This document shows, piece by piece, positions 1-10,678 of a stretch of DNA of 20,519 nucleotides. Positions within the stretch are counted from its first letter, which is position 1, and every line of letters starts with the position of its first letter. The stretch covers positions 1 to 20,519 of the IMG/VR virus record IMGVR_UViG_3300022822_000585, one strand, 5' to 3'. Below the pieces are notes generated by a model. The model was given only the letters and a program-made list of their open reading frames with translations, did no database searches and was not told the origin of the DNA. Both the position numbers and the translations under genes were made by a program. The stretch comes from a virus.

Positions 1-594
1 TTCTAGTGCATAGCTAGCGTGCAATGCCATCCAGATTGCTCTAATATGCTCTTTTTCTGAAACAACTTCGCCGAGTTCTTTACGGCAGTTAATAACGTGC
101 AACTTGTCATAGTAGTTGCCTACTGAACTTGCCATTCCAACAATTTCTTCTGTGTTGTGGATTGTGTTAAACACATCCTTAGGCACGTTATAGATATTGC
201 GGATAATATGACTGTAACTCTTGCTGTGAATGTTAGTTTCAAAGAAACCCCAGTTGTACATTAGCGCTTCAAGTTCAGGAAGGCTGCATACAGGAGCAAA
301 TACCTGTGTAGGACCTCTACCCTGAAGGCTATCCAAAGCAGTTTGGCGAAGTAGGTTACTAGTAAAAATATGCTTGACAGCATCGCTGGCCTCCTTAAAG
401 TCGTTACTATCTTTTGTGAGGCTTACTTCTTCTGGTTGCCAAAAGAAACCACGTGCAGTTGCATCAAAGTCTGCTATCTTCTTGTATTTGACTTCTTCAA
501 AACGTTGGATGACCACCGGACCAGCTGGGTCCAGAAACATCTTGCGATTCAGATAGTCTGTTGGTTTAGATAAATCGTACTGTGCTTTACTCAT
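1..594 (-). CDS. nrdB: Ribonucleotide reductase class Ia small subunit (R2), N-terminal part, runs off left edge
   Basis: The di-iron/tyrosyl-radical subunit of aerobic ribonucleotide reductase, which generates the radical used by NrdA to make dNTPs. I translated 198 codons from ATG 594; the C-terminal half lies outside the window. Visible R2 hallmarks are TALDSLQGRGP around residues 85-95 (Asp88, matching E. coli Asp84), then ETNIHSKSYSHIIRNIY at 119-135, with a metal-ligand Glu119, His123 and radical Tyr127. The E. coli motif is ETIHSRSY, so there is one extra residue between Glu and His here. The start is supported by a strong Shine-Dalgarno (AAGGAAG, about 9 nt upstream). The later metal ligands cannot be checked. 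Upstream is a decayed endonuclease tail; the partner nrdA is 7-10 kb away in the same direction. Confidence 0.96.
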   Translation of the reverse strand, partial: MSKAQYDLSKPTDYLNRKMFLDPAGPVVIQRFEEVKYKKIADFDATARGFFWQPEEVSLTKDSNDFKEASDAVKHIFTSNLLRQTALDSLQGRGPTQVFAPVCSLPELEALMYNWGFFETNIHSKSYSHIIRNIYNVPKDVFNTIHNTEEIVGMASSVGNYYDKLHVINCRKELGEVVSEKEHIRAIWMALHASYALE

Positions 595-1133: not shown

Positions 1134-1336
1134 TAAGTTGCAAAGTGTTGACGCACTACTGCTAGTTTGTCCTCATACTCTGCAATCTGTGCAATTTCAG
1201 CTTCTACTGCCGACATCCAGTCAGTGTGGTCATGAATAGCCATGGGATTGTGCAGCATGATCTCCACATTCATCTTGTGTTTTTGAACCTGTGCCGAAAA
1301 GTGTGCTTGCAATGTTGTTAATAGTTGATCTCTCAT
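1133..1336 (-). CDS. Small conserved phage hypothetical protein
   Basis: A 67-aa soluble helical protein, MRDQLLTTLQAHFSAQVQ at the start, with a central LHNPMAIHDHTDWM followed by a Glu/Ala-rich helix (AVEAEIAQIAEYEDKLAVV) that could form a short coiled coil. It is joined to glyA upstream by an ATGA overlap and to the next gene by TAATG, so all three are probably translated from one message. I do not recognise a known domain. Small proteins with an HDHTD-like segment and a helical tail occur in T4-like aquatic phages, which supports this being a real gene rather than a chance frame. Confidence 0.8.
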   Translation of the reverse strand: MRDQLLTTLQAHFSAQVQKHKMNVEIMLHNPMAIHDHTDWMSAVEAEIAQIAEYEDKLAVVRQHFAT

Positions 1337-2484
1337 TTTGAATCCCTTAGTATGTTAACCATTCTGTTGGCCAGCTCTTTGAACCACGCTTCGTCATGAC
1401 CGCGAGTGGTTTCTGCTGCTACACCAATACGCACACCTGATGTCTCAACAAAGCTTCTTGTGTCGCCAGGCACTCCGTTTTTATTTGCAGTGATACCATT
1501 TGCTTCCAACAAGTCAGCAAACTCGCGTCCACTGTATTGTTCTTTACGCAAGTCTATAGTCATCATGTGACACTGAGTCCCACCAGACACAATATCAACA
1601 CCGGCATCCATAAACGTTTGTGCCATTGCATGTGCATTGATACGGATACGTTTGGCGTACAACGTAAACTCTGGCTGCAATGCTTCGTAGAAACACTGTG
1701 CCTTGGCTGCAATGATGTGCATCAATGGACCGCCCTGTGTGCCTGGGAAAATAGCACTGTTGATCAGTTTGGAGTGGTCGGGATCATTCCATAAAATCAT
1801 GCCGCCACGCGGGCCGCGCAGTCCTTTGTGTGTTGTGGTTGTTACAATGTCAGCATGGGGGAACGGGCTGGGATACTCGCCGCCTGCGATTAGACCTGAA
1901 TAGTGAGCAATGTCTGCCAACAGCAGAGCACCCACGCTGGCTGCAATCTCTTCAAAACGGGCCCAGTCAATCACTTGACTGTAAGCACTGGCGCCAGCAA
2001 TCACCATTTTAGGTTGAGTGTCCCATACCAACTGTGCCACAGCATCGTAATCAATTAGTCCCTGTTCATTGACTCCGTAACTGTGTGAGTTGAACCAAGC
2101 GCCGCTGGCATTGACTTTGGCACCGTGACTTAAATGCCCACCACTGGCCAAGTCCATACCTACAATAACATCACCTGGCTTTAGAAATGCCTTGAATACT
2201 GCTAGGTTAGCATTGGCACCGGAGTGTGGTTGAACATTAGCAAAGGAACAATTAAATAGTTTGGTGGCATACTCAATAGCCAGTAGTTCTACCTTGTCTA
2301 CTTCATCGCAGCCATTGTAATAACGCTTGCCTGGCAGTCCTTCTGCATACTTGTTTGTGAAGATACTGCCACAGAGTTGCATCACTTCATCACTAGCAAA
2401 GTTCTCACTGGCAATCAGTTCAACTGTGTCTGCTTGGCGAATGCCTTCTGCAGATAATATACTTAAAATACGTTTATCAATCAT
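1333..2484 (-). CDS. glyA: Serine hydroxymethyltransferase
   Basis: A PLP enzyme converting serine plus tetrahydrofolate to glycine plus 5,10-methylene-THF, the carbon donor for thymidylate synthesis. The 383-residue protein carries the family signatures: LIASENF (23-29), NKYAEGLPGKRYYNGCD (44-60), QPHSGANAN (85-93), DIAHYSGLIA (191-200, with PLP-contacting Asp191 and His194) and TTTTHKGLRGPRGG (215-228), where Lys220 forms the internal aldimine. It is about 34 residues shorter than E. coli GlyA; the loss is at the C-terminus, which ends soon after ANRMVNILRDSK. A perfect sigma-70 promoter lies 38-66 nt upstream, and the gene leads a small operon towards nrdB. In a phage it most likely supports nucleotide synthesis together with RNR. 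Confidence 0.97.
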   Translation of the reverse strand: MIDKRILSILSAEGIRQADTVELIASENFASDEVMQLCGSIFTNKYAEGLPGKRYYNGCDEVDKVELLAIEYATKLFNCSFANVQPHSGANANLAVFKAFLKPGDVIVGMDLASGGHLSHGAKVNASGAWFNSHSYGVNEQGLIDYDAVAQLVWDTQPKMVIAGASAYSQVIDWARFEEIAASVGALLLADIAHYSGLIAGGEYPSPFPHADIVTTTTHKGLRGPRGGMILWNDPDHSKLINSAIFPGTQGGPLMHIIAAKAQCFYEALQPEFTLYAKRIRINAHAMAQTFMDAGVDIVSGGTQCHMMTIDLRKEQYSGREFADLLEANGITANKNGVPGDTRSFVETSGVRIGVAAETTRGHDEAWFKELANRMVNILRDSK

Positions 2485-2700: not shown

Positions 2701-3327
2701 TTATATTCTGTAAGCGACAGTAGTCATAATCTTACTAACTGCTTTCATGACAGATTTAGCACTTTTAGGAAGTTCTGTAGCGCCAGCGTGTACCGCTGCG
2801 GCGCCGTGTGCTGCTTCATCTTGTTTCATCTGTGTTATAATAACTCGACTAGCGTGATCATTCACAGGCAATTTCGACAAGTGATCTGCCAGATGCTGTT
2901 CCACTTGCCTTTCTGTTTCTGCTACAAATCCCAAACTTTGAGCATCGCCGCCTATTTTACCAGCTGCGTACCCCATTGCAAATGCTCCAATGTACCAAAT
3001 AGGATTCAGTAGGCTAGGCTTACCTCCCAATTGGTCTAATCTCTGCCGGCACCATACTAGGTGATCTACTTCTTCTCGACCTGCTTTTTCAAACAGGTTT
3101 TTAAGTGCAGAGTCTTGAGTGGCTAGGCATTGTCCACTATACAATGCTTGGGCGCACACTTCCCCTACGTGATTCACTCGCATTAATGCTGCACTGTGAT
3201 TGTTTTCTTTTTCAGTCAGTTCGGCAGTATCGGCTTTGCAAGTTGGTGACGATCTGCTAGCATAGGGTTTTGAAAACAGTGTGCGCAGGGCACAGTCAGC
3301 GGCGATTAATAAATGGTCTATATTCAT
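2701..3327 (-). CDS. coq7: Coq7-type demethoxyubiquinone hydroxylase
   Basis: A ferritin-like di-iron monooxygenase that hydroxylates 2-polyprenyl-3-methyl-6-methoxy-1,4-benzoquinone in the penultimate step of ubiquinone synthesis, acting at the inner membrane. The 208-aa protein has the family ligand set: MRVNHVGEVCAQALY (Glu56), REEVDHLVWC (Glu86, His89), AETERQVEQHL (Glu139) and QDEAAHG (Glu171, His174). SLLNPIWYIGAFAMGYAAG (105-123) is the family's hydrophobic segment, and the protein ends in MTTVAYRI, as many betaproteobacterial homologues do. Its ATG lies 7 nt after the fpr stop, so it is co-transcribed with fpr and AOX. All ligands are intact, so an active enzyme is expected. Its presence next to a quinol oxidase suggests the phage manipulates the host quinone pool. 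Confidence 0.95.
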   Translation of the reverse strand: MNIDHLLIAADCALRTLFSKPYASRSSPTCKADTAELTEKENNHSAALMRVNHVGEVCAQALYSGQCLATQDSALKNLFEKAGREEVDHLVWCRQRLDQLGGKPSLLNPIWYIGAFAMGYAAGKIGGDAQSLGFVAETERQVEQHLADHLSKLPVNDHASRVIITQMKQDEAAHGAAAVHAGATELPKSAKSVMKAVSKIMTTVAYRI

Positions 3328-3333
3328 ATCTTA

Positions 3334-4080
3334 TTATGTATCCACGAACGCTCGTTCGATTATGTACTGCCCTGGGTCACGCAAACTGCCTTCTTTCATA
3401 CCTTGTTGTTCACACCACAGCATGATTTCTTTATTAAAAGCCATGTTTCCGCACAGCATGATTTTGTCTTGTGCAGGGTCTATTGCCAACTTACCCGAAC
3501 TTAGTTGAGTCGTGATTCTGGGATCGCCCTGACCAGTAACCACAGGTTGATAATCCATCAGACTTTTGATTGTGGCATGTAGCTCACCGGATCTGTGATG
3601 ATCCAAGAATGCTGTGTGCAACTCACGGCGATATGCCAAATCTGCTGCATCTCTTACGCTGTGTACCAAATGAATCCGAGACCAAGTTTCCAAAGTTTCC
3701 AAGTCTTGAATCAGACTCATAAACGGTGCTAGACCAGTGCCAGTGGCTAGTAACCATAGTTCGCCGCCTTTGAGTAAAGCATCATTTCGCAGTGTGCCAG
3801 TAGGCTTGTCACCTATAATGACTTGATCGCCTATCTTGATATGTTGCAATCGACTGGTCAATGCACCATCGGCTATTTTAATACTGAGAAACTCTAGTTC
3901 TTCACTCCAAGGCGGACTCACCATACTGTAGGCTCTGCGAATACGTTTTCCTTCGTGCATAACACCAATTAATACAAATTCGCCAGCGTTAAATCTAAAT
4001 GCAGAGTTTCTAGTAGTCCTTAAACTGAAAGTTCGATCACTCCAGTGATGTACAGCAGTGACTGTTTCTTCAAATATCAT
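3334..4080 (-). CDS. fpr: Ferredoxin/flavodoxin-NADP+ reductase
   Basis: A bacterial-type FAD enzyme passing electrons between NADPH and ferredoxin or flavodoxin. Counting from ATG 4080 (248 aa): FAD-binding RRAYSMVSP at 48-56, DGALTSRLQ at 71-79, and the NADP(H)-binding glycine-rich LLATGTGLAPF at 110-120. The C-terminus GQYIIERAFVDT matches the Fpr group whose tail stacks near the flavin. A GTG six bases earlier (4086) is in frame, but the ATG has the better-placed GGAA. It lies between AOX and coq7 on the same strand. Possible jobs are feeding Fe-S assembly, reductive repair of the NrdB radical centre through a host ferredoxin, or supplying the Coq7 reaction; the sequence cannot choose among these. 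Confidence 0.95.
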   Translation of the reverse strand: MIFEETVTAVHHWSDRTFSLRTTRNSAFRFNAGEFVLIGVMHEGKRIRRAYSMVSPPWSEELEFLSIKIADGALTSRLQHIKIGDQVIIGDKPTGTLRNDALLKGGELWLLATGTGLAPFMSLIQDLETLETWSRIHLVHSVRDAADLAYRRELHTAFLDHHRSGELHATIKSLMDYQPVVTGQGDPRITTQLSSGKLAIDPAQDKIMLCGNMAFNKEIMLWCEQQGMKEGSLRDPGQYIIERAFVDT

Positions 4081-4104
4081 TCGCACTATTCCAAATAATT
4101 TGTT

Positions 4105-4707
4105 TTACTTTTTAGTATCGTAATCGTCAGCATACGCATGGTTCACTTCGCTGTGTCCTTGTTCATCGGCCCTTACCGCTATTATAACATCTCTAAGTCT
4201 AGCGTCAACAGGTAAATTCCAATAATCGATGGCTAATTGTGGTGCAGGCACATTGAGCTCTGGATTGGAATCAACCTGGGCCAGATAATCTGTGTAACTG
4301 ATCACTGCTTCTTCTTCAAAATAGCCCACAATCCTATGTGCTGTGCGGGGGAAGAATATATAGATGAACAAGAACACATGCCAGAAAACAAATTGCGCCA
4401 CAAGCACCAACATACGTTCAAACCAATTAGGTTTGACGATTTCAATAAATGTCATCAAGTGCATACGTTCGTTTTCTGCCTCAGCTAACAACATTCGAAT
4501 CTTGGGACCATATCCTGTTTTCATCTGACGTAGACTTTTAAGATGCGTCCACATTCCTGCAACCATGCCAGGCACGGCTGCTACTGTTTCTAGTACAACT
4601 GCTCTGTGTCCGTACTGTTTTAGAAAGAATGTATCTGCTACCCAGCGCAGCATCATAGTAAATCGTTTTGCGTTGCGGTCGCTGATAGTAGTAGGGATAT
4701 GATGCAT
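4105..4707 (-). CDS. aox: Alternative oxidase (cyanide-insensitive quinol oxidase)
   Basis: A membrane-bound di-iron quinol oxidase that reduces oxygen to water with electrons from ubiquinol, without pumping protons. The 200-aa sequence contains every family motif: LETVAAVPGMV (Glu40), AENERMHLMTF (Glu80, His83), GYFEEEAVISYT (128-139, one of Glu131-133 as ligand) and RADEQGHSEVNH (Glu182, His185). A hydrophobic stretch at 100-119 fits the membrane-embedded helix. LPVD and PAPQLAIDYW match mitochondrial/proteobacterial AOX rather than the plastid-type PTOX of cyanophages. The N-terminus is short, with no targeting peptide. The ATG follows directly on the aldolase stop (TAA-ATG), so translation is probably coupled. 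Confidence 0.96.
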   Translation of the reverse strand: MHHIPTTISDRNAKRFTMMLRWVADTFFLKQYGHRAVVLETVAAVPGMVAGMWTHLKSLRQMKTGYGPKIRMLLAEAENERMHLMTFIEIVKPNWFERMLVLVAQFVFWHVFLFIYIFFPRTAHRIVGYFEEEAVISYTDYLAQVDSNPELNVPAPQLAIDYWNLPVDARLRDVIIAVRADEQGHSEVNHAYADDYDTKK

Positions 4708-5364
4708 TTAATATTTTCCACTTGCTAACACAATTTTGCAAATATGTTCCAATCTCTCTACATGTTCATACGCCCGCCATGGTGTTGTGTCAATAGCAAC
4801 AACACCGTGTCCTTTGATACCTACGATGTCATAGGCAGTATTACCGTCTTTATCTAGTTCTAAATTCCAGTGGCATTGATCTGCAAGTTCCTGACTGATA
4901 GGAGCAACATCTCCTACATTAGGCGCAACTCGAGTATAGCGATTAAGTTCTGGAAACGCATCACTAACTGTGCTTAAATTAATGCCAGCATGCATTGCTG
5001 CAATACAGTAAGTAGGATGTACATGTACAACTACTCGAACTTCACCCGCATGTTGGCCCATTTCTTTTTGTAAGCCAAAGTGCAATGGAATCTCACCGCT
5101 TGGTGTTAAGTTCTTACTAATATCAGTATAAGGTAACTCTTGCCAGCTATAGTTAATGGCAGCAGTACCGTGACCACTATGTATAGTTTTATCAATACCA
5201 ATCTTTTTAAACTGATCAGGTTGCAGAGTCTGCTTTCGGACACCACTAGGTGTAATGTAAAAGTGGTCTCTATCGTGATGGCGAATACTCACGTTGCCGT
5301 CACGGCTGGTAATCCAATTGCGTTTATACGCATCTAACATCACATCACATATTGTTTCTAACAT
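4708..5364 (-). CDS. Class II aldolase/adducin family protein (fuculose-phosphate aldolase-like)
   Basis: A 218-aa Zn-dependent class II aldolase fold, close in length to E. coli FucA (215 aa). Motifs: TSRDGNVSIR (19-28, phosphate loop), YITPSGVR (37-43), SGEIPLH (89-95, catalytic Glu91), VVHVHPTY (112-119, Zn ligands His114 and His116) and IKGHGVVAID (183-192, third Zn ligand His186). All metal ligands are present, so it should be active, but the substrate could be a sugar phosphate (fuculose- or ribulose-type) or a methylthioribulose-phosphate-like compound. The start at 5364 avoids 75 bases of overlap with iscA. It sits 4 nt after the iscA stop and abuts AOX, so it belongs to the same operon. 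Confidence 0.92.
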   Translation of the reverse strand: MLETICDVMLDAYKRNWITSRDGNVSIRHHDRDHFYITPSGVRKQTLQPDQFKKIGIDKTIHSGHGTAAINYSWQELPYTDISKNLTPSGEIPLHFGLQKEMGQHAGEVRVVVHVHPTYCIAAMHAGINLSTVSDAFPELNRYTRVAPNVGDVAPISQELADQCHWNLELDKDGNTAYDIVGIKGHGVVAIDTTPWRAYEHVERLEHICKIVLASGKY

Positions 5365-5368
5365 TACT

Positions 5369-5695
5369 TTATACTCTAAAACTTTCACCGCAACCACACC
5401 GGTCACGCTCGTTGGGGTTAGTAAATTCAAACCCCTCATTCAATCCATTGCGTACCCAATCCACAACTATTCCGTTTAGGTAGGGTTCATCTTTGGTGCT
5501 TATTAATACAGCAAACTTAGATTGAGCATAATTTGTTACACCCTCCTCGTACTCGATGCTGTCTACATATTCTAACACATATGCCAATCCACTGCAACCA
5601 GTAGTTCTAACTGCTATTCGAATACCCACACCCTTGCCACGGCGTTCTAAATTCTGGCTAATTCGTTTACTTGCTGTTTCGGTTACGGTAATCAT
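5369..5695 (-). CDS. iscA: Iron-sulfur cluster assembly protein IscA
   Basis: An A-type Fe-S/iron carrier of 108 residues. The three conserved cysteines are at TTGCSG (Cys34) and in the C-terminal CGCGESF (Cys100, Cys102), corresponding to E. coli IscA Cys35/99/101. FTNPNERDRCGCGESF supports IscA rather than ErpA or HesB types. The ATG directly follows the iscU stop (TAG-ATG), with an AAGG inside the end of iscU as Shine-Dalgarno, indicating tight coupling. HesB/IscA-like genes are well known in marine phages; pairing with a full IscU is less common. It may load Fe-S clusters or iron on phage or host enzymes in the operon. Confidence 0.96.
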   Translation of the reverse strand: MITVTETASKRISQNLERRGKGVGIRIAVRTTGCSGLAYVLEYVDSIEYEEGVTNYAQSKFAVLISTKDEPYLNGIVVDWVRNGLNEGFEFTNPNERDRCGCGESFRV

Positions 5696-6088
5696 CTATC
5701 GCAGCCTTGATTGCTTTGTTTTGTAATCTAAAATTGCTGCTTTAAGACTATCTTCAGCCAAAATGCTGCAATGAATTTTTACGGGCGGAAGCGCCAACTC
5801 CTCTGCAATCTGACTATTTTTAATAGTGCTTGCTTGATCCAATGTCAATCCTTTTATCATTTCTGTTACAAGGCTTGAACTTGCAATTGCACTGCCACAT
5901 CCATATGCCTTGAACTTTGCATCAATTATAATATCTGTCGCTGGATCAACTTTAATACTTAACTGTAAAAGGTCACCGCATGCCGGTGCTCCGACGAGTC
6001 CAAAACCTACATCACTATCTTTTTTATTAAGAGTTCCTACATTTCTGGGGTTCTCATAATGGTCCACCACAGCAGCTGAATAAGCCAT
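5696..6088 (-). CDS. iscU: Iron-sulfur cluster scaffold IscU
   Basis: A scaffold on which IscS builds [2Fe-2S] clusters. The 130-aa protein is complete: PACGD (Cys37, Asp39), YGCGSAIASSS (Cys64), the chaperone-recognition motif LPPVK (100-104) and KIHCSILAEDS (His106, Cys107). N-terminal YENPRNVG is also typical. All ligands and the HscA-binding motif remain, so it could plug directly into the host Isc machinery; no phage IscS or HscA is seen here. Its Shine-Dalgarno (TAGGAG, 8 nt upstream) lies within the last codons of the preceding HNH endonuclease, so that insertion left iscU translation intact. Confidence 0.97.
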   Translation of the reverse strand: MAYSAAVVDHYENPRNVGTLNKKDSDVGFGLVGAPACGDLLQLSIKVDPATDIIIDAKFKAYGCGSAIASSSLVTEMIKGLTLDQASTIKNSQIAEELALPPVKIHCSILAEDSLKAAILDYKTKQSRLR

Positions 6089-6089
6089 T

Positions 6090-6695
6090 TTAATCTCCTA
6101 TTATAGATTGTACTACTTCCATCGGTTGATCAAAATGCCATTTACGACGATTCTCTTCACCCGTTATAAACTGTATATTATTTCGTTGTCCTAACAATAT
6201 AGGATCTATTCCTAACTTAAACCCTTGCATTATAGAAATAATGTGATCTAATTGCAAGTCTGTAGGATGTTTCCCACAAGTTGGTATCTGCTCTCCAGCC
6301 TGTTTCATTTTTTTAAGGGTTCTATATGTTGCGTACCTGACTTTGCTTCGATACAGTTTTAACAAATCAGTTTGCGGATTTTTTAGTCTTAGATTATTAG
6401 TCTTACCTTCCCAGTTAGGATTATTTTCGCCCTTCCATTTCAGACTTTGTGTTTCACTGGACAATCCCTTATTCCAGCCCCACCCTTTCTTTAATCCTTC
6501 TGTATTCTGTTTGGCTTTTTGTTCTTCTGTAAGTTTGATACCTTTGTTCCATGGTTCATACTCTCCTCGGTTCAACGGGTTTTTGCATTTCTGAGAACAA
6601 TAATCTAAAAATCGTGGACGAGTTTCAAATTCACTCTTACAAAATAAACACTGTTTAAAATTACCATACTTGTTTTTCATACAAATATTTATCAT
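6090..6695 (-). CDS. HNH homing endonuclease with NUMOD3-like segment
   Basis: A 201-aa free-standing homing endonuclease. Residues 16-37 form a small Zn-finger (CLFC...CSQKC). Residues 49-98 carry NUMOD3-like DNA-binding repeats (PWNKGIK, WNKGLS, KWKGENNPNWEGK). The HNH nuclease follows: LQLDHIISIMQGF (148-159), GID at 162-164, RNNIQFITGEENRRKWH (171-187). It is inserted between sodB and iscU, 18 nt after the sodB stop. A late-like box AATAAATA (6718-6711) overlaps that stop, suggesting late expression as for T4 endonucleases. No clear Shine-Dalgarno is visible; Met6 (6680) is an alternative start. It is a mobile element, unlikely to help the metabolic genes around it. Confidence 0.93.
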   Translation of the reverse strand: MINICMKNKYGNFKQCLFCKSEFETRPRFLDYCSQKCKNPLNRGEYEPWNKGIKLTEEQKAKQNTEGLKKGWGWNKGLSSETQSLKWKGENNPNWEGKTNNLRLKNPQTDLLKLYRSKVRYATYRTLKKMKQAGEQIPTCGKHPTDLQLDHIISIMQGFKLGIDPILLGQRNNIQFITGEENRRKWHFDQPMEVVQSIIGD

Positions 6696-6710
6696 CTTGG
6701 CGCACCCGCT

Positions 6711-6718
6711 TATTTATT
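6711..6718 (-). promoter_or_regulatory. Candidate late promoter for the HNH endonuclease
   Basis: AATAAATA on the minus strand (7 of 8 to TATAAATA), overlapping the sodB stop. T4-type spacing would put transcription start near 6705, ten bases before the endonuclease ATG. It lacks the CT that follows most other boxes here. Confidence 0.4.
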
Positions 6719-7316
6719 GGTTACTTTGGCTGAGTACGACATTTATTGTTCTCCAGTTTATTATCTTCCAGATGTTCTGCAAGTATTTCTTTTTGTCTGC
6801 TTGATAGTCCAGGGCCCATGCATGTTCCCACCAATCAATCAACAACACAATGTCATTGCGTACTTCGTGGTTCACAATAGTTTTGATCTTGCCATCCTGT
6901 GCCAAGTACACCCATCCACTACCTTGTATCTTCATGGCCACAGTTTCGACTTGGTCTCGGAATGCATCATAGGTTTTATAATGCTGTTCGATAAACGCTA
7001 AACTGGCATCGTAAGGTCTATTAGCACCTTGTGGTGCATGTAATTGACCAAAGTATATGTTGTGCAGAAATGCGCCGGCTTCATTGAAATCAGCATCGCC
7101 TTCGCCTTTGTTGTAACGATCAACATAGCCCTTATACAAAGTGCCGTAGTGATAGTCAAGAGTTTCTTTGCTCTTGACAGGTGCCAAATCTGTAGGTTTG
7201 TAAGGCAAAGGCAAATGAAACAATTTGTCTTTTTTTCCTTCTAGGAGGACATTTCTAATAAAATTATAAGCCATTATAGTTTGTCCAGTCGGTGTCAAGA
7301 GTTGGAATCCATCCAC
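6714..7316 (-). CDS. sodB: Fe/Mn-family superoxide dismutase
   Basis: Dismutes superoxide to oxygen and hydrogen peroxide. Numbered from ATG 7316 (200 aa), the four metal ligands are His56 (LDYHYG), His85 (FLHNIYF), Asp161 and His165 (LIDWWEHAWALDY); GSGWVYLAQDGKI (132-144) is the usual core. Outer-sphere positions are atypical: Gly81 four residues before His85, as in MnSOD, and His150 where Gln or Ala is usual, so metal preference is uncertain. The protein has an N-terminal extension before LPLPYKPTDLAP. ATG 7316 has AGGAG but only 3 nt spacing; an internal ATG at 7274 (MAYNFIRNVLL) is an equally reasonable start. It lies between nrdA-b and the HNH insertion, upstream of the Fe-S genes. Confidence 0.92.
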   Translation of the reverse strand: MDGFQLLTPTGQTIMAYNFIRNVLLEGKKDKLFHLPLPYKPTDLAPVKSKETLDYHYGTLYKGYVDRYNKGEGDADFNEAGAFLHNIYFGQLHAPQGANRPYDASLAFIEQHYKTYDAFRDQVETVAMKIQGSGWVYLAQDGKIKTIVNHEVRNDIVLLIDWWEHAWALDYQADKKKYLQNIWKIINWRTINVVLSQSNQ

Positions 7317-7384: not shown

Positions 7385-8401
7385 TTACAACTTACAAGAT
7401 AAACAATCTTCCTCGTCATCAAAGTTAATTGGTTCTAGCATAGTAGGCGCATCGTCTGCAGCCATCTTGCTGCCTGCTTTGTTAATTAAACTGTAGTAGA
7501 AGGTCTTAAGGCCCCATATATGCGCCTGCATCAAGTTCTTGGCAATTAATGTAGTTGGCACTTTACGATTTGGAAAGTGTGCTGGATTGTAGAATGTGTT
7601 AGTACTAATACTTTGGTCAGTGTAGGCCGCAATAACAGCCGCTGTCTTAATGTAACCAACGCAGTCTTTCTGCTCCCACATCAGCTGATACTTGTTCTTC
7701 AACTTGTTATATTCGGGAGCAACTTGCGTAAACGATCCTGCTTTTGATTCTTTAGTGGTAATTAAACTCATTGGCATTTCAATACCATTGGTACTGTCGA
7801 TAACCACTGAACTAGACTCAACAGGAGCAACTGCACCATTGGTAGCATTGCGCACACCGTGGATTAACATTTCTTTGCGTAACGTTTCCCAATCTAATTC
7901 AGGAGTAAAGTCGGTTAACTCGTTAACGCCCTTAGCACGTAGTTCCCAAGGAAATATTCCTTGACCGTAACGAGTATGGTCGCTGTCTAAACACTTACCA
8001 CGCTCTTTAGCTAGTTCAACTGACATTTCTGTTAAGTAGAATGACTGGTGCTCTTGCCAGCTCTTAACCTCAGCCAGTGCATCTTTCTCACCGTACTTAA
8101 GGCTGCGCTTGGCATGCCAGTATGCTAGGTTAGTAATGCCAATGCCCAATGGGCGAATCTCATCGTTACTGAGTTTACTCTGTATCGACAAAAAGTCTTG
8201 ATAGTCAAGAATGTTATTTAGGCTACGATGTAGAATTCTACAAGCTCTACGCATATCCTCTGGGTTCCGGAACGCTCCCCAGTTCATAGATCCCAAGGTA
8301 CACAGGGACACTCTGCCCTCGACTTCATCAATTTCATAATACTCGTATTCGTCATCTAGTTCTTCCGGTAGACATTCTATCTCTTCATATAATGCGTTCA
8401 T
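7385..8401 (-). CDS. nrdA: Ribonucleotide reductase large subunit, C-terminal fragment (NrdA-b)
   Basis: The downstream half of a split class Ia NrdA, 338 aa. VSLCTLGSMNWGAF (31-44) holds Cys34, the equivalent of redox Cys462 of E. coli NrdA. APVESSSVV and the GLKTFYYS segment (radical-transfer Tyr pair, E. coli Tyr730/731) follow, and the C-terminal CLSCKL (Cys333, Cys336) is the thioredoxin-reducible tail. The first 29 residues are extra compared with intact NrdA and strongly acidic (13 Asp/Glu, no Lys/Arg). A proper start exists: AGGA six bases before ATG 8401, placed just after the endonuclease stop. It must assemble with NrdA-a to be active, since the catalytic Cys439 equivalent is in the other piece. 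Confidence 0.95.
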   Translation of the reverse strand: MNALYEEIECLPEELDDEYEYYEIDEVEGRVSLCTLGSMNWGAFRNPEDMRRACRILHRSLNNILDYQDFLSIQSKLSNDEIRPLGIGITNLAYWHAKRSLKYGEKDALAEVKSWQEHQSFYLTEMSVELAKERGKCLDSDHTRYGQGIFPWELRAKGVNELTDFTPELDWETLRKEMLIHGVRNATNGAVAPVESSSVVIDSTNGIEMPMSLITTKESKAGSFTQVAPEYNKLKNKYQLMWEQKDCVGYIKTAAVIAAYTDQSISTNTFYNPAHFPNRKVPTTLIAKNLMQAHIWGLKTFYYSLINKAGSKMAADDAPTMLEPINFDDEEDCLSCKL

Positions 8402-8409
8402 TGTTCATC

Positions 8410-9141
8410 CTAGTTATTTCTTAAAAGTTTGCCATGTTTTATCAAAAGATGTCTACTTATTCCAGTTGCATCTATTGCCTCAACTAATGTGTTATATGTA
8501 ACATCATTATATTTTATTTTTGGGTCAGCATTGGCTCTTTTTGCTTTTTTTACGCCATCACTGTTTATTTTACTTTTTTCACTATCTGTTAGATATTGTT
8601 TTTCCTTAAACTCATATATAACATTTCTGTTGTTAGTAAGTTTACGACACTTATATCCTTTATAGTGTCCTCTATTGCCTCTTGCTACAGCACTCATTGC
8701 ACTAGCATTTAATCCATTATTTCGACAAAATTCTAACATATTTTCTAAAATTAAATGTTCGCCGGTTGGAGTAGTAATTTCCCAAGTATCTGTTAGTTTT
8801 GCTTTTTGTTCAGCAGACATTGGAAGATTTTTATTGCCGCCACCATCAATGCCGTTTTCTTCAATTAGGTTTGCCCAAATTCTTTCACCGTCTGTGTTCC
8901 TAGCATTTACAATATTATTTTCTTTGCTAAAATTAATAGCAAATTGATATATCTGGTCTTTGTTCTCAAATAATTGACACCATACTGTTTCAACTTCGGT
9001 GCCGTGTTCTTTAAGATGCCTTTTCCAATAAGTACCAGACCCTAGATATTTTATAGGGTCTTTTCCGGTAGTTTTACAAAGATATTTCAATCCAGTAATT
9101 TTATGTTTCTTAATCATTAGCCACGTGGGTGTAAAAGTCAT
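8410..9141 (-). CDS. Free-standing homing endonuclease splitting nrdA (GIY-YIG/Seg-like with NUMOD1/IENR1 motif)
   Basis: A 243-aa protein inserted between the two nrdA halves. Its N-terminus (residues 8-45: LMIKKHKITGLKYLCKTTG, KYLGSGTYWKRHL) and EERIWANL-type and GIDGG segments (to about 100) match a family of phage Seg-like homing endonucleases distantly related to GIY-YIG enzymes; assignment is by resemblance only. Residues 132-168 (NMLEFCRNNGLNASAMSAVARG, GYKCRKL) fit a NUMOD1/IENR1 helix-turn-helix DNA-binding repeat, with a second partial one near the C-terminus. Members I recall usually have YFGKT where this has YLCKT, so nuclease activity is uncertain. A hairpin covering its ribosome-binding site and a late-like promoter in the loop suggest T4-style timing control. 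Confidence 0.85.
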   Translation of the reverse strand: MTFTPTWLMIKKHKITGLKYLCKTTGKDPIKYLGSGTYWKRHLKEHGTEVETVWCQLFENKDQIYQFAINFSKENNIVNARNTDGERIWANLIEENGIDGGGNKNLPMSAEQKAKLTDTWEITTPTGEHLILENMLEFCRNNGLNASAMSAVARGNRGHYKGYKCRKLTNNRNVIYEFKEKQYLTDSEKSKINSDGVKKAKRANADPKIKYNDVTYNTLVEAIDATGISRHLLIKHGKLLRNN

Positions 9142-9149
9142 TTATTATT

Positions 9150-9193
9150 CCTAAAGTACATTGTAGTTATTTATCATTACTATGTACTTTAGG
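9150..9193 (-). promoter_or_regulatory. Ribosome-binding-site hairpin upstream of the endonuclease
   Basis: A perfect 12-bp inverted repeat, CCTAAAGTACAT (9193-9182) and ATGTACTTTAGG (9161-9150), with a 20-nt loop. The 3' arm ends in TTTAGG, so in transcripts reading through from nrdA-a the Shine-Dalgarno (TAGGA) for the endonuclease at 9141 would be buried. No T-run follows, so it is not a terminator. The layout copies the I-TevI control known in phage T4. Confidence 0.75.
9168..9175 (-). promoter_or_regulatory. Candidate late promoter inside the hairpin loop
   Basis: GATAAATA, 7 of 8 to the T4 late box. With T4 spacing (+1 six bases beyond the box) RNA would start near 9162, leaving out the 5' arm of the hairpin and exposing the ribosome-binding site for the endonuclease. 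Confidence 0.55.
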
Positions 9194-9202
9194 CACGTTT
9201 AA

Positions 9203-10678
9203 CTATGATATCTTTCTGATCTTAACTATATCATTAGACTTGTTTTTCATAAACTCATCTACCTTATCTTTTTTAACACGAACTGTCTTTCGTGTTGGAT
9301 CCAGGCGTTTGAATGATTTGGTTGGTAATAGAATCTCACAACACAAGTTACTTTGATAAATCGCATGATATTCAGGATTGAAAGGCCCTTGGTTCATTAC
9401 ATTATCAATGAATACAAGATATATTCGACCTGTGTCCGTGCGTTCCTTCAAAATACCACTCTTGAACACTTCTTCAGCACTCATAGTCTTTTTACGTAGA
9501 CCTTTCTGCTTTTCGTACTTGACATACAGTTCTTCAAACAAAGAGGTATCTCTGTAGAACGCTTCATACAAGTCAGGTACTTCATTAGGGTCAAAGAATG
9601 TTATTTGTTCTTTGTTCTTGAACCGTCTCCAGAAGAAGGCAGAAAGAACCACTCCGTAATCCATATGTCGGACTCGAGTTTCTTCAGTGCCTTGATTATT
9701 TTTAAGCACAATAAGATCATCAAACTGATGATGCCAAATAGGATAAAACACTGTAGCACTAGCATTACGAATTCCACCTTGTGAACATGAACGCAAATCA
9801 CCAAACCATTTCTTTAAGAACGGTATCATGCCTGTGTGTTGAATTTCCCCGCCACGAATCGGGGCACCTAATGAACGTAGACGTCCAATTTCTAAACCAA
9901 TGCCAGCACGTTTGCTAGCATACTTTGCCATCATCTCACCAGATGCAAAAATACTATCCAAGTCATCATCGCTACGAATAAGAACACAGCTACTAAATTG
10001 CTTAGTAGGAGTGCCCAAACCGGCCAAGACCGGAGTTGCAAGAGTAAAGAGTCCATCACTAGCTGCATTGTAATATTCTTTGATGTAACGCATACGTGCG
10101 CCGCTTGGTTCTTCTTTGTGAAAAATCGTAGCAGATGCAACCATGTATCTAATCTGTGGAGTTTCGTAAATTTCCTTTGTTGCACGATTACGTACCAAGT
10201 ACTTTTCAATTAACTGTTCAATGGCTGCATATCCATACTGTTCATCTTTTTCATGATCCAGCATGTCATCCATCTTGTTCCACTCGTCTTGACTGTACCA
10301 GTCTAATAATTCACTAGTGTACAGGCCAACAGCAACATTCTTCTTTACAATTTCGTAAAGGTGGGGAACTTCATATGACTCATATACATTCTTCCTCAAC
10401 ATTGATAGCCGCTGTTTACCTGCTACATATTGATAGTTAGTATGTCCTACATCGGGATTTTGTTCTACATCGATTAGGTCAACAATAGCACGTAATGTGA
10501 TACCGTCAATTTCTTCTGTTGTTATGTTATCGTAAAAGTGCAATTGCGCTTTAATCTCAATCATTGACTGACTGACATCTGCAATACCTTTACATACTTT
10601 TGCGATCTGTGCCTGCCACTTCTCGATCATCAATGGCTCTTTCGCTCCACTTCTTTTTATTACCGTAATCGTTGTCAT
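9203..10678 (-). CDS. nrdA: Ribonucleotide reductase large subunit, N-terminal fragment (NrdA-a)
   Basis: The upstream half of split class Ia NrdA, 491 aa. Residues 1-90 are an ATP-cone (VIKRSGAKEPL, TTEEIDGITLRAIVDLID), so ATP/dATP activity control is likely kept. The catalytic barrel begins with TPTKQFSSCVLI (Cys231, E. coli Cys225) and has QSNLCCEILLPTK (Asn444, Cys446, Glu448, matching E. coli Asn437, Cys439, Glu441). Homology ends near FKRLD (456-460); the last 31 residues are foreign and basic. The matching C-terminal cysteine (Cys462 equivalent) is in NrdA-b. GAGG six bases before ATG 10678 is a good ribosome-binding site. Aeromonas phage Aeh1 is a known precedent for a split NrdA that works as two polypeptides. 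Confidence 0.96.
   Translation of the reverse strand: MTTITVIKRSGAKEPLMIEKWQAQIAKVCKGIADVSQSMIEIKAQLHFYDNITTEEIDGITLRAIVDLIDVEQNPDVGHTNYQYVAGKQRLSMLRKNVYESYEVPHLYEIVKKNVAVGLYTSELLDWYSQDEWNKMDDMLDHEKDEQYGYAAIEQLIEKYLVRNRATKEIYETPQIRYMVASATIFHKEEPSGARMRYIKEYYNAASDGLFTLATPVLAGLGTPTKQFSSCVLIRSDDDLDSIFASGEMMAKYASKRAGIGLEIGRLRSLGAPIRGGEIQHTGMIPFLKKWFGDLRSCSQGGIRNASATVFYPIWHHQFDDLIVLKNNQGTEETRVRHMDYGVVLSAFFWRRFKNKEQITFFDPNEVPDLYEAFYRDTSLFEELYVKYEKQKGLRKKTMSAEEVFKSGILKERTDTGRIYLVFIDNVMNQGPFNPEYHAIYQSNLCCEILLPTKSFKRLDPTRKTVRVKKDKVDEFMKNKSNDIVKIRKIS

What the first reader, a model, noticed from the sequence alone, without database searches (positions are those of the whole stretch)
2701..7316. Phage-encoded quinol oxidase, ubiquinone hydroxylase, Fpr, SOD and IscU/IscA in one block
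AOX, Coq7, Fpr, class II aldolase, IscA and IscU are packed with 0-24 base gaps, with SOD next door, and all key metal ligands are intact. Cyanophages carry PTOX, a plastid-type relative of AOX, as a photosynthetic electron valve; this looks like the equivalent for a respiring host: Coq7 makes or finishes ubiquinone, AOX drains ubiquinol to water without proton pumping, SOD removes superoxide, and Isc proteins supply Fe-S clusters. NrdB, AOX and Coq7 are all di-iron enzymes, so the cluster may have assembled around iron loading. The role is inference.
Basis: partly seen in the sequence, partly recalled or inferred. Interest (0 to 1): 0.86.

Follow-up and report, generated by a model that had tools for sequence, protein, structure and literature searches.

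The report
Phage genes that rewire host respiration
An uncultured bacterial virus carries intact genes for a non-pumping respiratory oxidase and for finishing ubiquinone, and hundreds of other virus sequences carry the same oxidase, some of them beside genes for other parts of the respiratory chain, so many viruses may take over how their host cell breathes.

Summary
AOX, Coq7, Fpr, class II aldolase, IscA, IscU and Fe/Mn SOD are intact and packed in an uncultured phage fragment; three other assemblies match their overlaps with it at 99.96-100%, so it is not a chimaera. Corrections: an HNH-like ORF lies between IscU and SOD; the aldolase starts at 5364.

All 85 viral rows checked keep six di-iron ligands. 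Phage AOX are polyphyletic (AU p=1.6e-6), interleaved with Polynucleobacter, SAR86 and Pelagibacter-like genes. It is not cyanophage PTOX.

The block is not conserved as a unit: Coq7 passes its cut-off in 0 of 50 other AOX records (mostly fragments); two cousins lack the Fpr-Coq7 or the SOD-to-IscA segment at the matching place.

Beyond the finding: some AOX phages carry sdhB at or near the AOX start (two host origins, no sdhA found), ALA synthase, a SufT-like gene and, in one T4-like lineage, coxB-coxA-cox11. Likeliest reading: a phage-encoded quinol-oxidising branch in a modular respiratory kit, sustaining quinone-linked metabolism for nucleotide synthesis. Enzyme identities are strong; physiology is inferred.

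The parts
4105..4707 (-). alternative (ubiquinol) oxidase AOX, 200 aa
   Evidence: PF01786 249 bits; PDB T. brucei AOX 7e-44; AlphaFold model pLDDT 86.9 matches 5zdp_D TM 0.93, rmsd 1.7; six di-iron ligands
2701..3327 (-). Coq7-type demethoxyubiquinone hydroxylase
   Evidence: NF033656 equivalog 295 bits, cut-off 180; aligned to human COQ7 7ssp with all six ligand positions kept (positions recalled)
3334..4086 (-). ferredoxin/flavodoxin-NADP reductase (Fpr-like), GTG start
   Evidence: PDB 2bgi 5.1e-66; FAD and NAD domains; NCBIfam PRK10926 128 bits, below its cut-off of 390
4708..5364 (-). class II aldolase/MtnB-like enzyme, substrate unknown; start corrected from 5439
   Evidence: PF00596 92 bits; below the cut-off of each of the 17 NCBIfam models matched; weak PDB match to MtnB 4m6r, 4.8e-5; start by comparison with L021 and L004
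5369..5695 (-). A-type Fe-S carrier, IscA-like
   Evidence: PF01521; TIGR00049 over cut-off, TIGR02011 125.7 bits below its cut-off of 150.6
5696..6088 (-). IscU Fe-S scaffold
   Evidence: TIGR01999 199.4 bits over cut-off; phrog_8429
6090..6695 (-). HNH-like ORF (probable homing endonuclease) between iscU and SOD
   Evidence: no Pfam match; phrog_5104 (unknown function) 45 bits; HNH-like residues read by eye; a 49% relative sits between pieces of the iscU gene in L284 and L296
6714..7316 (-). Fe/Mn superoxide dismutase
   Evidence: PF02777 and PF00081 over cut-off; PDB 1ues 8.1e-23
1333..2484 (-). serine hydroxymethyltransferase GlyA; directly follows AOX in L005
   Evidence: PF00464 475 bits, NF000586 over cut-off; L005 order
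1..594 (-). NrdB, cut by the window end (366 aa in L002 and G002)
   Evidence: PF00268; full length
7385..8401 (-). NrdA, C-terminal piece
   Evidence: NF006578 258.8 bits, profile 450-760; uninterrupted 781 aa NrdA in L021
8410..9141 (-). endonuclease-like ORF splitting nrdA
   Evidence: phrog_2081 HNH endonuclease 38.8 bits; no Rfam match at gathering score
9203..10678 (-). NrdA, N-terminal piece
   Evidence: phrog_84 540 bits

Best explanation
The window is part of a phage metabolic island beside nrdA/nrdB. Its central gene makes an AOX that oxidises the host's ubiquinol with O2 to water without pumping protons. During infection this would keep the quinone pool oxidised whatever the membrane potential, the ATP demand or the fate of the host's own oxidases, so that quinone-linked dehydrogenases and the carbon flow into nucleotides keep running; nrdAB, glyA, a glutaredoxin-like protein and AOX then serve one need, dNTP supply. 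Coq7 would top up or finish ubiquinone; IscU/IscA would supply Fe-S clusters; SOD (and a peroxiredoxin-like protein elsewhere in this virus) would handle the superoxide and peroxide of a faster electron flow; Fpr would supply low-potential electrons. In some related phages part of the entry side of the branch is present too: SdhB is encoded at or near the start of AOX. SHOWN (sequence, fold, tree): enzyme identities, ligand conservation, purifying selection, phage setting, more than one exchange of AOX between phages and bacteria, sdhB-AOX adjacency with sdhB from two host groups. INFERRED: activity, expression, physiological role, and a Burkholderiaceae (Polynucleobacter-like) host.
For: Family, PDB and fold matches. 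Ligands 6 of 6 plus Tyr138 in 85 of 85 viral rows (window and near-duplicates included) and 80 of 80 bacterial rows; pN 0.07-0.23 against saturated pS 0.78-0.94 in pairs of the window AOX with 8 relatives. AOX in at least 547 viral stretches. AOX polyphyly, AU p=1.6e-6. sdhB 6 bases upstream of an AOX frame in L022, overlapping AOX by 8 bases in L325 and at the same place in G603, one small ORF away in L326. Phage SdhB falls with Polynucleobacter (L269) and in a clade with SAR86 (14 rows); the 10 cluster-cysteine columns are Cys in 30 of 30. A SufT-like gene directly before sdhB in two records, an ALA-synthase frame overlapping AOX by 11 bases in two records (one of them cut by the contig end), coxB-coxA-cox11 in one. 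nrdA/B within the fetched flanks (up to 10 kb) of AOX in 13 of 83 viral loci. AhpC-like and AhpD-like genes on either side of AOX and aldolase in L004 (both below their NCBIfam cut-offs).
Against: No expression or activity data. Coq7 and Fpr occur with AOX only in this one virus in what I searched, so their part in an AOX module rests on adjacency alone. No SdhB, ALAS or Cox hit in the contigs of this virus that I searched for them (L002 and L003). AOX sits in many unrelated places in other phages (near gp23, gp43, gp44, gp41). Linkage to nrd is not general: of 21 records with both AOX and nrdB, 11 have them within 7 kb, but 7 of these 11 are contigs of 15 kb or less; on longer contigs it is 4 of 14. 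Polynucleobacter genomes already hold AOX and Coq7, so a need for extra copies is not shown. SdhB was found in 1 of 83 viral AOX loci and ALAS in 7, so these partners are minority features.
Confidence: 0.6

Rival explanations
1. Antioxidant package: AOX, SOD, peroxiredoxin and AhpC/AhpD-like proteins mainly protect Fe-S enzymes and the RNR radical from reactive oxygen during infection; AOX prevents over-reduction of the quinone pool rather than feeding synthesis.
For: SOD in the window; Prx-like and Grx-like proteins in the same virus; AhpC-like and AhpD-like genes around AOX in L004 and both on the L021 contig.
Against: Of 83 viral AOX loci, by tblastn with these proteins, SOD is found in 1, Prx in 2, AhpC and AhpD in 1 each; sdhB, ALAS and cox genes do not fit a pure antioxidant role.
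Confidence: 0.2
2. Opportunistic mosaic: a hyper-variable region spread by homing endonucleases in which each host gene is kept for its own small benefit; there is no functional unit, and Coq7/Fpr/aldolase next to AOX is accident.
For: SOD-HNH-IscU-IscA is absent from the matching place in L021 and Fpr-Coq7 from that in L005; endonuclease-like ORFs lie beside iscU, inside nrdA and after an AOX 5' piece in L022; Coq7 over cut-off in 0 of 50 other AOX records.
Against: sdhB-AOX adjacency in lineages whose sdhB comes from two different host groups, ALAS-AOX overlap, the SufT-like-sdhB-AOX run and strong purifying selection on AOX suggest function.
Confidence: 0.3
3. One reading: NrdB, AOX and Coq7 were gathered because all need iron loading, with the Isc proteins supplying iron.
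For: Three di-iron proteins within 5 kb; IscU in 6 of 50 AOX records.
Against: IscU/IscA build Fe-S clusters, not di-iron sites (established knowledge); no IscU match in 44 of 50 AOX records, mostly fragments; I saw no di-iron loading factor among the window's annotated frames, though I ran no dedicated search for one.
Confidence: 0.08
4. Artefact: host DNA assembled into, or mislabelled as, viral contigs.
For: Most records are fragments; only 7 of 50 carry a T4 gp23 match; 50 of 83 viral AOX loci show none of the phage hallmarks I searched for; one MAG contig in the bacterial set (L151) is probably phage, so labels can be wrong.
Against: Matching assemblies of the window; complete circular phage C48C1 holds AOX, SdhB and IscU among T4-like genes; the 200.7 kb record G603 holds sdhB-AOX with relatives of gp17, 18, 20, 21, 23, 32, 41, 43-47 and 55; 33 of 83 viral AOX loci against 0 of 80 bacterial loci carry phage hallmarks (bacterial flanks shorter).
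Confidence: 0.02

Closest known systems
Cyanophage PTOX (plastoquinol terminal oxidase)
   Same: Phage-encoded non-heme di-iron quinol oxidase of the AOX/PTOX superfamily, hypothesised to help balance ATP and NADPH pools in the infected cell (passages of PMC3037559)
   Different: Different subfamily (30.7% over 57%, E 2e-3); plastoquinol and photosynthetic host against ubiquinol and, by inference, respiring Pseudomonadota
Prasinovirus AOX/PTOX (viruses of Micromonas and Ostreococcus)
   Same: Virus-encoded oxidase of this superfamily (passages of PMC12584671)
   Different: Large DNA viruses of eukaryotic algae; placed by that paper's tree near algal sequences
Proteobacterial AOX (Polynucleobacter, SAR86, Methylophilaceae)
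   Same: Up to 82% identity and the same ligands
   Different: Cellular; e.g. next to a ligA-like gene in L092 (read from the ORF)
Viral TCA-cycle and electron-transport gene families in Pacific viromes
   Same: Reports sdh and respiratory complex genes in viromes (passages of PMC4053976)
   Different: Gene-family counts; its main text has no occurrence of 'alternative oxidase' or 'sdhB', and the passages seen give no genome setting
Trypanosoma brucei AOX (3vv9, 5zdp)
   Same: Fold, TM 0.93, 43% identity
   Different: Mitochondrial, longer N-terminus

Membership tests
Alternative oxidase (PF01786) | Pfam score over cut-off | tested here: met
   249 bits, cut-off 22.7
Alternative oxidase (PF01786) | Four Glu and two His di-iron ligands and the active-site Tyr | tested here: met
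   85 of 85 viral rows; E80, H83 and N79 lie in the pattern that recruited most rows; ligand roles recalled
Alternative oxidase (PF01786) | AOX fold | tested here: met
   TM 0.93 to 5zdp_D, rmsd 1.7
Alternative oxidase (PF01786) | Cyanide-insensitive ubiquinol oxidation | not testable with these tools
   needs expression
Cyanophage PTOX | Groups with PTOX rather than AOX | tested here: not met
   E 2e-3, 30.7% over 57%; one PTOX sequence only, on a very long branch
Coq7 (NF033656) | Equivalog cut-off | tested here: met
   295 bits, cut-off 180
Coq7 (NF033656) | C-6 hydroxylation of the ubiquinone ring | not testable with these tools
   E. coli ubiF-deletion complementation is an established assay (passages of PMC5069965)
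E. coli-type Fpr (PRK10926) | Equivalog cut-off | tested here: not met
   128 bits, cut-off 390; closest PDB relatives are other bacterial ferredoxin-NADP reductases
IscU (TIGR01999) | Equivalog-domain cut-off and three Cys | tested here: met
   199.4 bits, cut-off 192.4; Cys read from sequence
IscA (TIGR02011) | Equivalog cut-off | tested here: not met
   125.7 bits, cut-off 150.6; TIGR00049 subfamily met
Fe/Mn SOD | Both Pfam domains over cut-off | tested here: met
   PF00081 34.3 bits (cut-off 27) and PF02777 73.9 bits (cut-off 20.9)
Phage auxiliary metabolic gene | Encoded in a phage genome, related to host genes | tested here: met
Phage auxiliary metabolic gene | Expressed in infection and changes host metabolism | not testable with these tools
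   no transcript data

The most novel reading that the evidence does not exclude
T4-like phages of aquatic Pseudomonadota carry a modular respiratory kit, assembled more than once from host genes: an SdhB swap-in or top-up (with a SufT-like protein or IscU/IscA to build its clusters) feeding ubiquinone, AOX draining ubiquinol to O2, Coq7/Fpr renewing ubiquinone, ALA synthase for haem and, in one lineage, cytochrome c oxidase subunits I and II with Cox11. Together they place the infected cell's electron transport under phage control, with a succinate-to-oxygen short circuit that is free of proton-motive control.
Probability: 0.4. Interest if true: 0.92.

Novelty: new variant of a known kind. 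Interest (0 to 1): 0.8.

Why it matters
Phage takeover of energy metabolism is best known for photosynthesis in cyanophages. Here hundreds of uncultured viral sequences, whose nearest cellular relatives are respiring aquatic bacteria, encode a quinol oxidase, and some encode a subunit of succinate dehydrogenase or of cytochrome c oxidase. If active, infection would change the oxygen use and growth yield of such bacteria without changing ATP in proportion, which bears on respiration budgets. It also makes direct tests possible: C48C1 is a complete genome with AOX, SdhB and IscU, and AOX, Coq7 and SdhB each have a simple complementation assay.

Tried and rejected
PTOX identity: rejected. Chimaera: rejected. 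AOX-Coq7 as a recurrent pair: rejected in what was searched; the three weak COQ7 hits are below cut-off and coincide with the AOX genes themselves. Coq7 hits in 'Acinetobacter phage MD-2021a' sit among kdp, tamB and glutamine synthetase genes, i.e. bacterial DNA; several SdhB and CoxA hits in the phage collection look like the same problem (not examined one by one). Group I intron in nrdA: no Rfam match at gathering score. Coq7 and Fpr donor: no close one; at most 59% among the matches listed for 369 drawn genomes of the class of G009 and 53% among those listed for 150 of its family. T4 late-promoter words (recalled motif): scattered matches only; the nearest one upstream of the block on its strand is at 8215, inside the nrdA piece. 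A Coq7 alignment for a tree failed and was not repeated. Literature: ten full-text searches listed no paper that, by title and start of abstract, describes AOX in a phage of heterotrophic bacteria or Coq7 in a phage; only 30 of 89 papers were listed, 15 of 153 and 15 of 1,200, and subscription journals and preprints are not held. No search was left for sdhB or cox genes in phages, so nothing is claimed about their absence from print. Five papers were seen as passages only (PMC3037559, PMC12584671, PMC7472177, PMC5069965, PMC4053976), the rest as listings.
Full report
WHAT IS THERE. The window is a 20519-base virus record, a fragment. No PHROG matched AOX, Coq7, Fpr or SOD at E 0.001. Two corrections: an HNH-like ORF (6090-6695) lies between IscU and SOD, and the aldolase starts at 5364 rather than 5439, as in its relatives. 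The island is flanked by nrdA, here split in two by an endonuclease-like ORF (7385-10678), and by glyA and nrdB. Farther on, another contig of the same virus has a glutaredoxin-like and a peroxiredoxin-like frame (below NCBIfam cut-offs).

NOT A CHIMAERA. The whole window is identical to part of 3300022841_000477; its first 4909 and 3684 bases match 3300005933_000684 (99.96%) and 3300022832_000129 (100%). Upstream genes are phage genes: an exonuclease (phrog_298), a tail-spike-like protein and proteins that recur in other viral AOX contigs (relatives of the window's structural or exonuclease genes in 25 of 83 viral AOX loci, the window virus included).

THE AOX. The protein matches Pfam AOX at 249 bits. 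An AlphaFold model from 41 window and locus sequences has mean pLDDT 86.9 and superposes on T. brucei AOX with TM 0.93, rmsd 1.7 and 43% identity. Glu40, Glu80, His83, Glu131, Glu182, His185 and Tyr138 are kept in 85 of 85 viral rows (the window and near-duplicates included) and 80 of 80 bacterial rows (one 73-residue fragment, L022's first copy, is under the length limit and was left out; Glu80, His83 and Asn79 lie inside the pattern that recruited most rows). Against eight relatives pN is 0.07-0.23 while pS is 0.78-0.94, i.e. saturated: the gene is under strong purifying selection.

HOW COMMON. One scan with the window protein found 11 viral loci. At E 1e-5, one of 50,697 GenBank phage records has it: the complete, circular phage C48C1, placed in Kyanoviridae, where it is annotated as hypothetical.

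WHERE IT COMES FROM. In a tree of 106 rows (near-duplicates collapsed) and a careful tree of 71 rows (PTOX, the long branches L011 and L013 and many bacterial rows left out) phage AOX do not form one clade; an AU test on the second rejects it (p=1.6e-6). Only the 80 closest hits of each collection went in, with the first-scan loci and C48C1. One bacterial-labelled row, L151, is probably a phage contig and was counted as bacterial; other bacterial groups are interleaved without it. The window clade holds a Polynucleobacter MAG AOX beside cell genes (L092, 82%); other phage groups sit with SAR86 and with Pelagibacter/Puniceispirillum-like genes. In related phage L022 the encoded SdhB is 79-84% identical to that of four Polynucleobacter genomes. 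A Polynucleobacter-like host is therefore likely for this clade, though the window's own Coq7 (up to 53% in those four genomes; up to 59% among the matches listed) and Fpr (up to 53% among those listed) have no close donor here.

THE BLOCK IS A MOSAIC. In L005 glyA begins at the AOX stop codon and Fpr/Coq7 are absent from between them. In L021 the aldolase begins at the nrdA stop and SOD/HNH/IscU/IscA are absent from that place; IscU-IscA lie about 40 kb away on that contig. So the cousins share an nrdA-aldolase-AOX-glyA-nrdB backbone in varying states, and the window virus has two extra segments. Among 83 viral AOX loci (flanks up to 10 kb, duplicates included) Coq7 and Fpr occur in 2, both this virus; SOD in 1, also this virus; the aldolase in 5 at E 1e-6, two of them this virus (a short stretch in L005 shows at 3e-7); nrdA/B in 13. 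Over whole records of 50 chosen AOX carriers, Coq7 passes its cut-off in 0, IscU in 6, nrdB in 21 and T4 gp23 in 7. Of the 21, AOX and nrdB lie within 7 kb in 11, but 7 of those 11 are contigs of 15 kb or less; on longer contigs it is 4 of 14. Most records are fragments, so absences are weak. Endonuclease-like ORFs beside iscU, in nrdA and after an AOX 5' piece in L022 suggest how such segments move (inference).

WHAT ELSE AOX PHAGES CARRY. In L022 a complete SdhB lies 6 bases before an AOX 5' piece, followed by a homing endonuclease on the other strand and then a full AOX. A scan with this SdhB found 29 viral loci. All 30 phage SdhB, C48C1 included, keep the 10 cluster cysteines (roles recalled). 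SdhA (PF02910) is found in 0 of 30 records, while the same model rings in 11 of 14 control genomes; AOX is found in 7 of 30. SdhB overlaps AOX by 8 bases in L325, lies at the same place in the 200.7 kb T4-like record G603, and is one small ORF away in L326; in C48C1, G607 and G608 the two are more than 8 kb apart. A SufT-like Fe-S gene (PF01883 over cut-off, TIGR02945 below) directly precedes sdhB in L325 and G603. The SdhB tree puts L022 with Polynucleobacter and the other 14 distinct phage rows in a clade with SAR86, so sdhB joined AOX in phages with genes from two host groups. In G607, which also holds relatives of gp17, gp18, gp20, gp21 and gp23, a 5-aminolevulinate synthase (567.6 bits, cut-off 338.55) overlaps AOX by 11 bases; G608 is colinear with G607, has the same overlap with an ALAS frame cut by the contig end, and has an extra run of coxB, coxA and cox11, all over their NCBIfam equivalog cut-offs. 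A second viral contig has a coxA 92% identical over the part present followed by a cox11-like frame. ALAS relatives lie in 7 of 83 viral AOX loci and 0 of 80 bacterial ones, SdhB in 1 of 83 (bacterial flanks are shorter).

MECHANISM. Established knowledge: AOX oxidises ubiquinol with O2 without pumping protons; Coq7 carries out the C-6 hydroxylation of ubiquinone synthesis (PMC5069965, passages); SdhB carries electrons from succinate to quinone; IscU/IscA and SufT-like proteins serve Fe-S assembly. I infer that the phage keeps the quinone pool oxidised and so frees carbon and nucleotide metabolism from control by membrane potential, with Coq7 renewing quinone and SOD/peroxiredoxin handling by-products. 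The neighbours nrdAB and glyA fit a link to dNTP supply. The main rivals are an antioxidant package and a mosaic without functional unity; both may hold in part.

KNOWN OR NEW. The enzymes are known families, and virus-encoded oxidases of this superfamily are known as PTOX in cyanophages and AOX/PTOX in algal viruses. Viromes have been said to hold sdh and respiratory genes. I found no paper on AOX in phages of heterotrophic bacteria in ten searches of an open-access library (listed in Tried and rejected, with their capped lists), which is not proof of absence. I file it as a new variant of a known kind: phage auxiliary metabolism aimed at aerobic respiration rather than photosynthesis.

Noticed in passing
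window 7385-10678: nrdA is split into two reading frames around an endonuclease-like ORF (8410-9141), with extra tails at both break points and no Rfam match; it resembles a gene-in-pieces RNR (recalled: phage Aeh1). The cousin L021 has an uninterrupted 781-aa NrdA.
   Followed up: partly
L328 3584-6472 (3300048036_000455); L330 (3300017908_000147): A T4-like phage contig carries coxB, coxA and cox11 as an insertion relative to its colinear cousin G607; a second contig has a 92% identical coxA. coxC was not searched for; none was recognised among the ORFs listed.
   Followed up: partly
L022 7874-10579: sdhB, then a 79-aa AOX 5' piece, then a homing endonuclease on the opposite strand, then a full AOX: AOX itself may be a homing target.
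   Followed up: partly
L284 298-1117 and L296 6606-7425: The iscU gene appears interrupted by an HNH-like ORF that is 49% identical to the window's ORF 6090-6695 next to iscU.
   Followed up: no
L150 and L155 (Pelagibacteraceae): Bacterial AOX follows frames that read by eye as methylcitrate-cycle-like (prpB/prpC), with nrdAB convergent downstream; AOX-nrd proximity exists in cells too (L150, L153-L155).
   Followed up: no
L151: A MAG contig labelled Synechococcus (AOX about 81% identical to a phage AOX, NrdA/NrdB related to the window's) is probably a misbinned phage contig.
   Followed up: partly
Acinetobacter phage MD-2021a records (L014): GenBank 'phage' records that hold bacterial chromosomal genes (kdp, tamB, coq7, sdhB, cyoB), so hits to them are not phage evidence.
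   Followed up: partly
OQ984149.1 26279-26830 and 43111-43818: Complete phage C48C1 encodes AOX and SdhB, both annotated as hypothetical proteins.
   Followed up: yes
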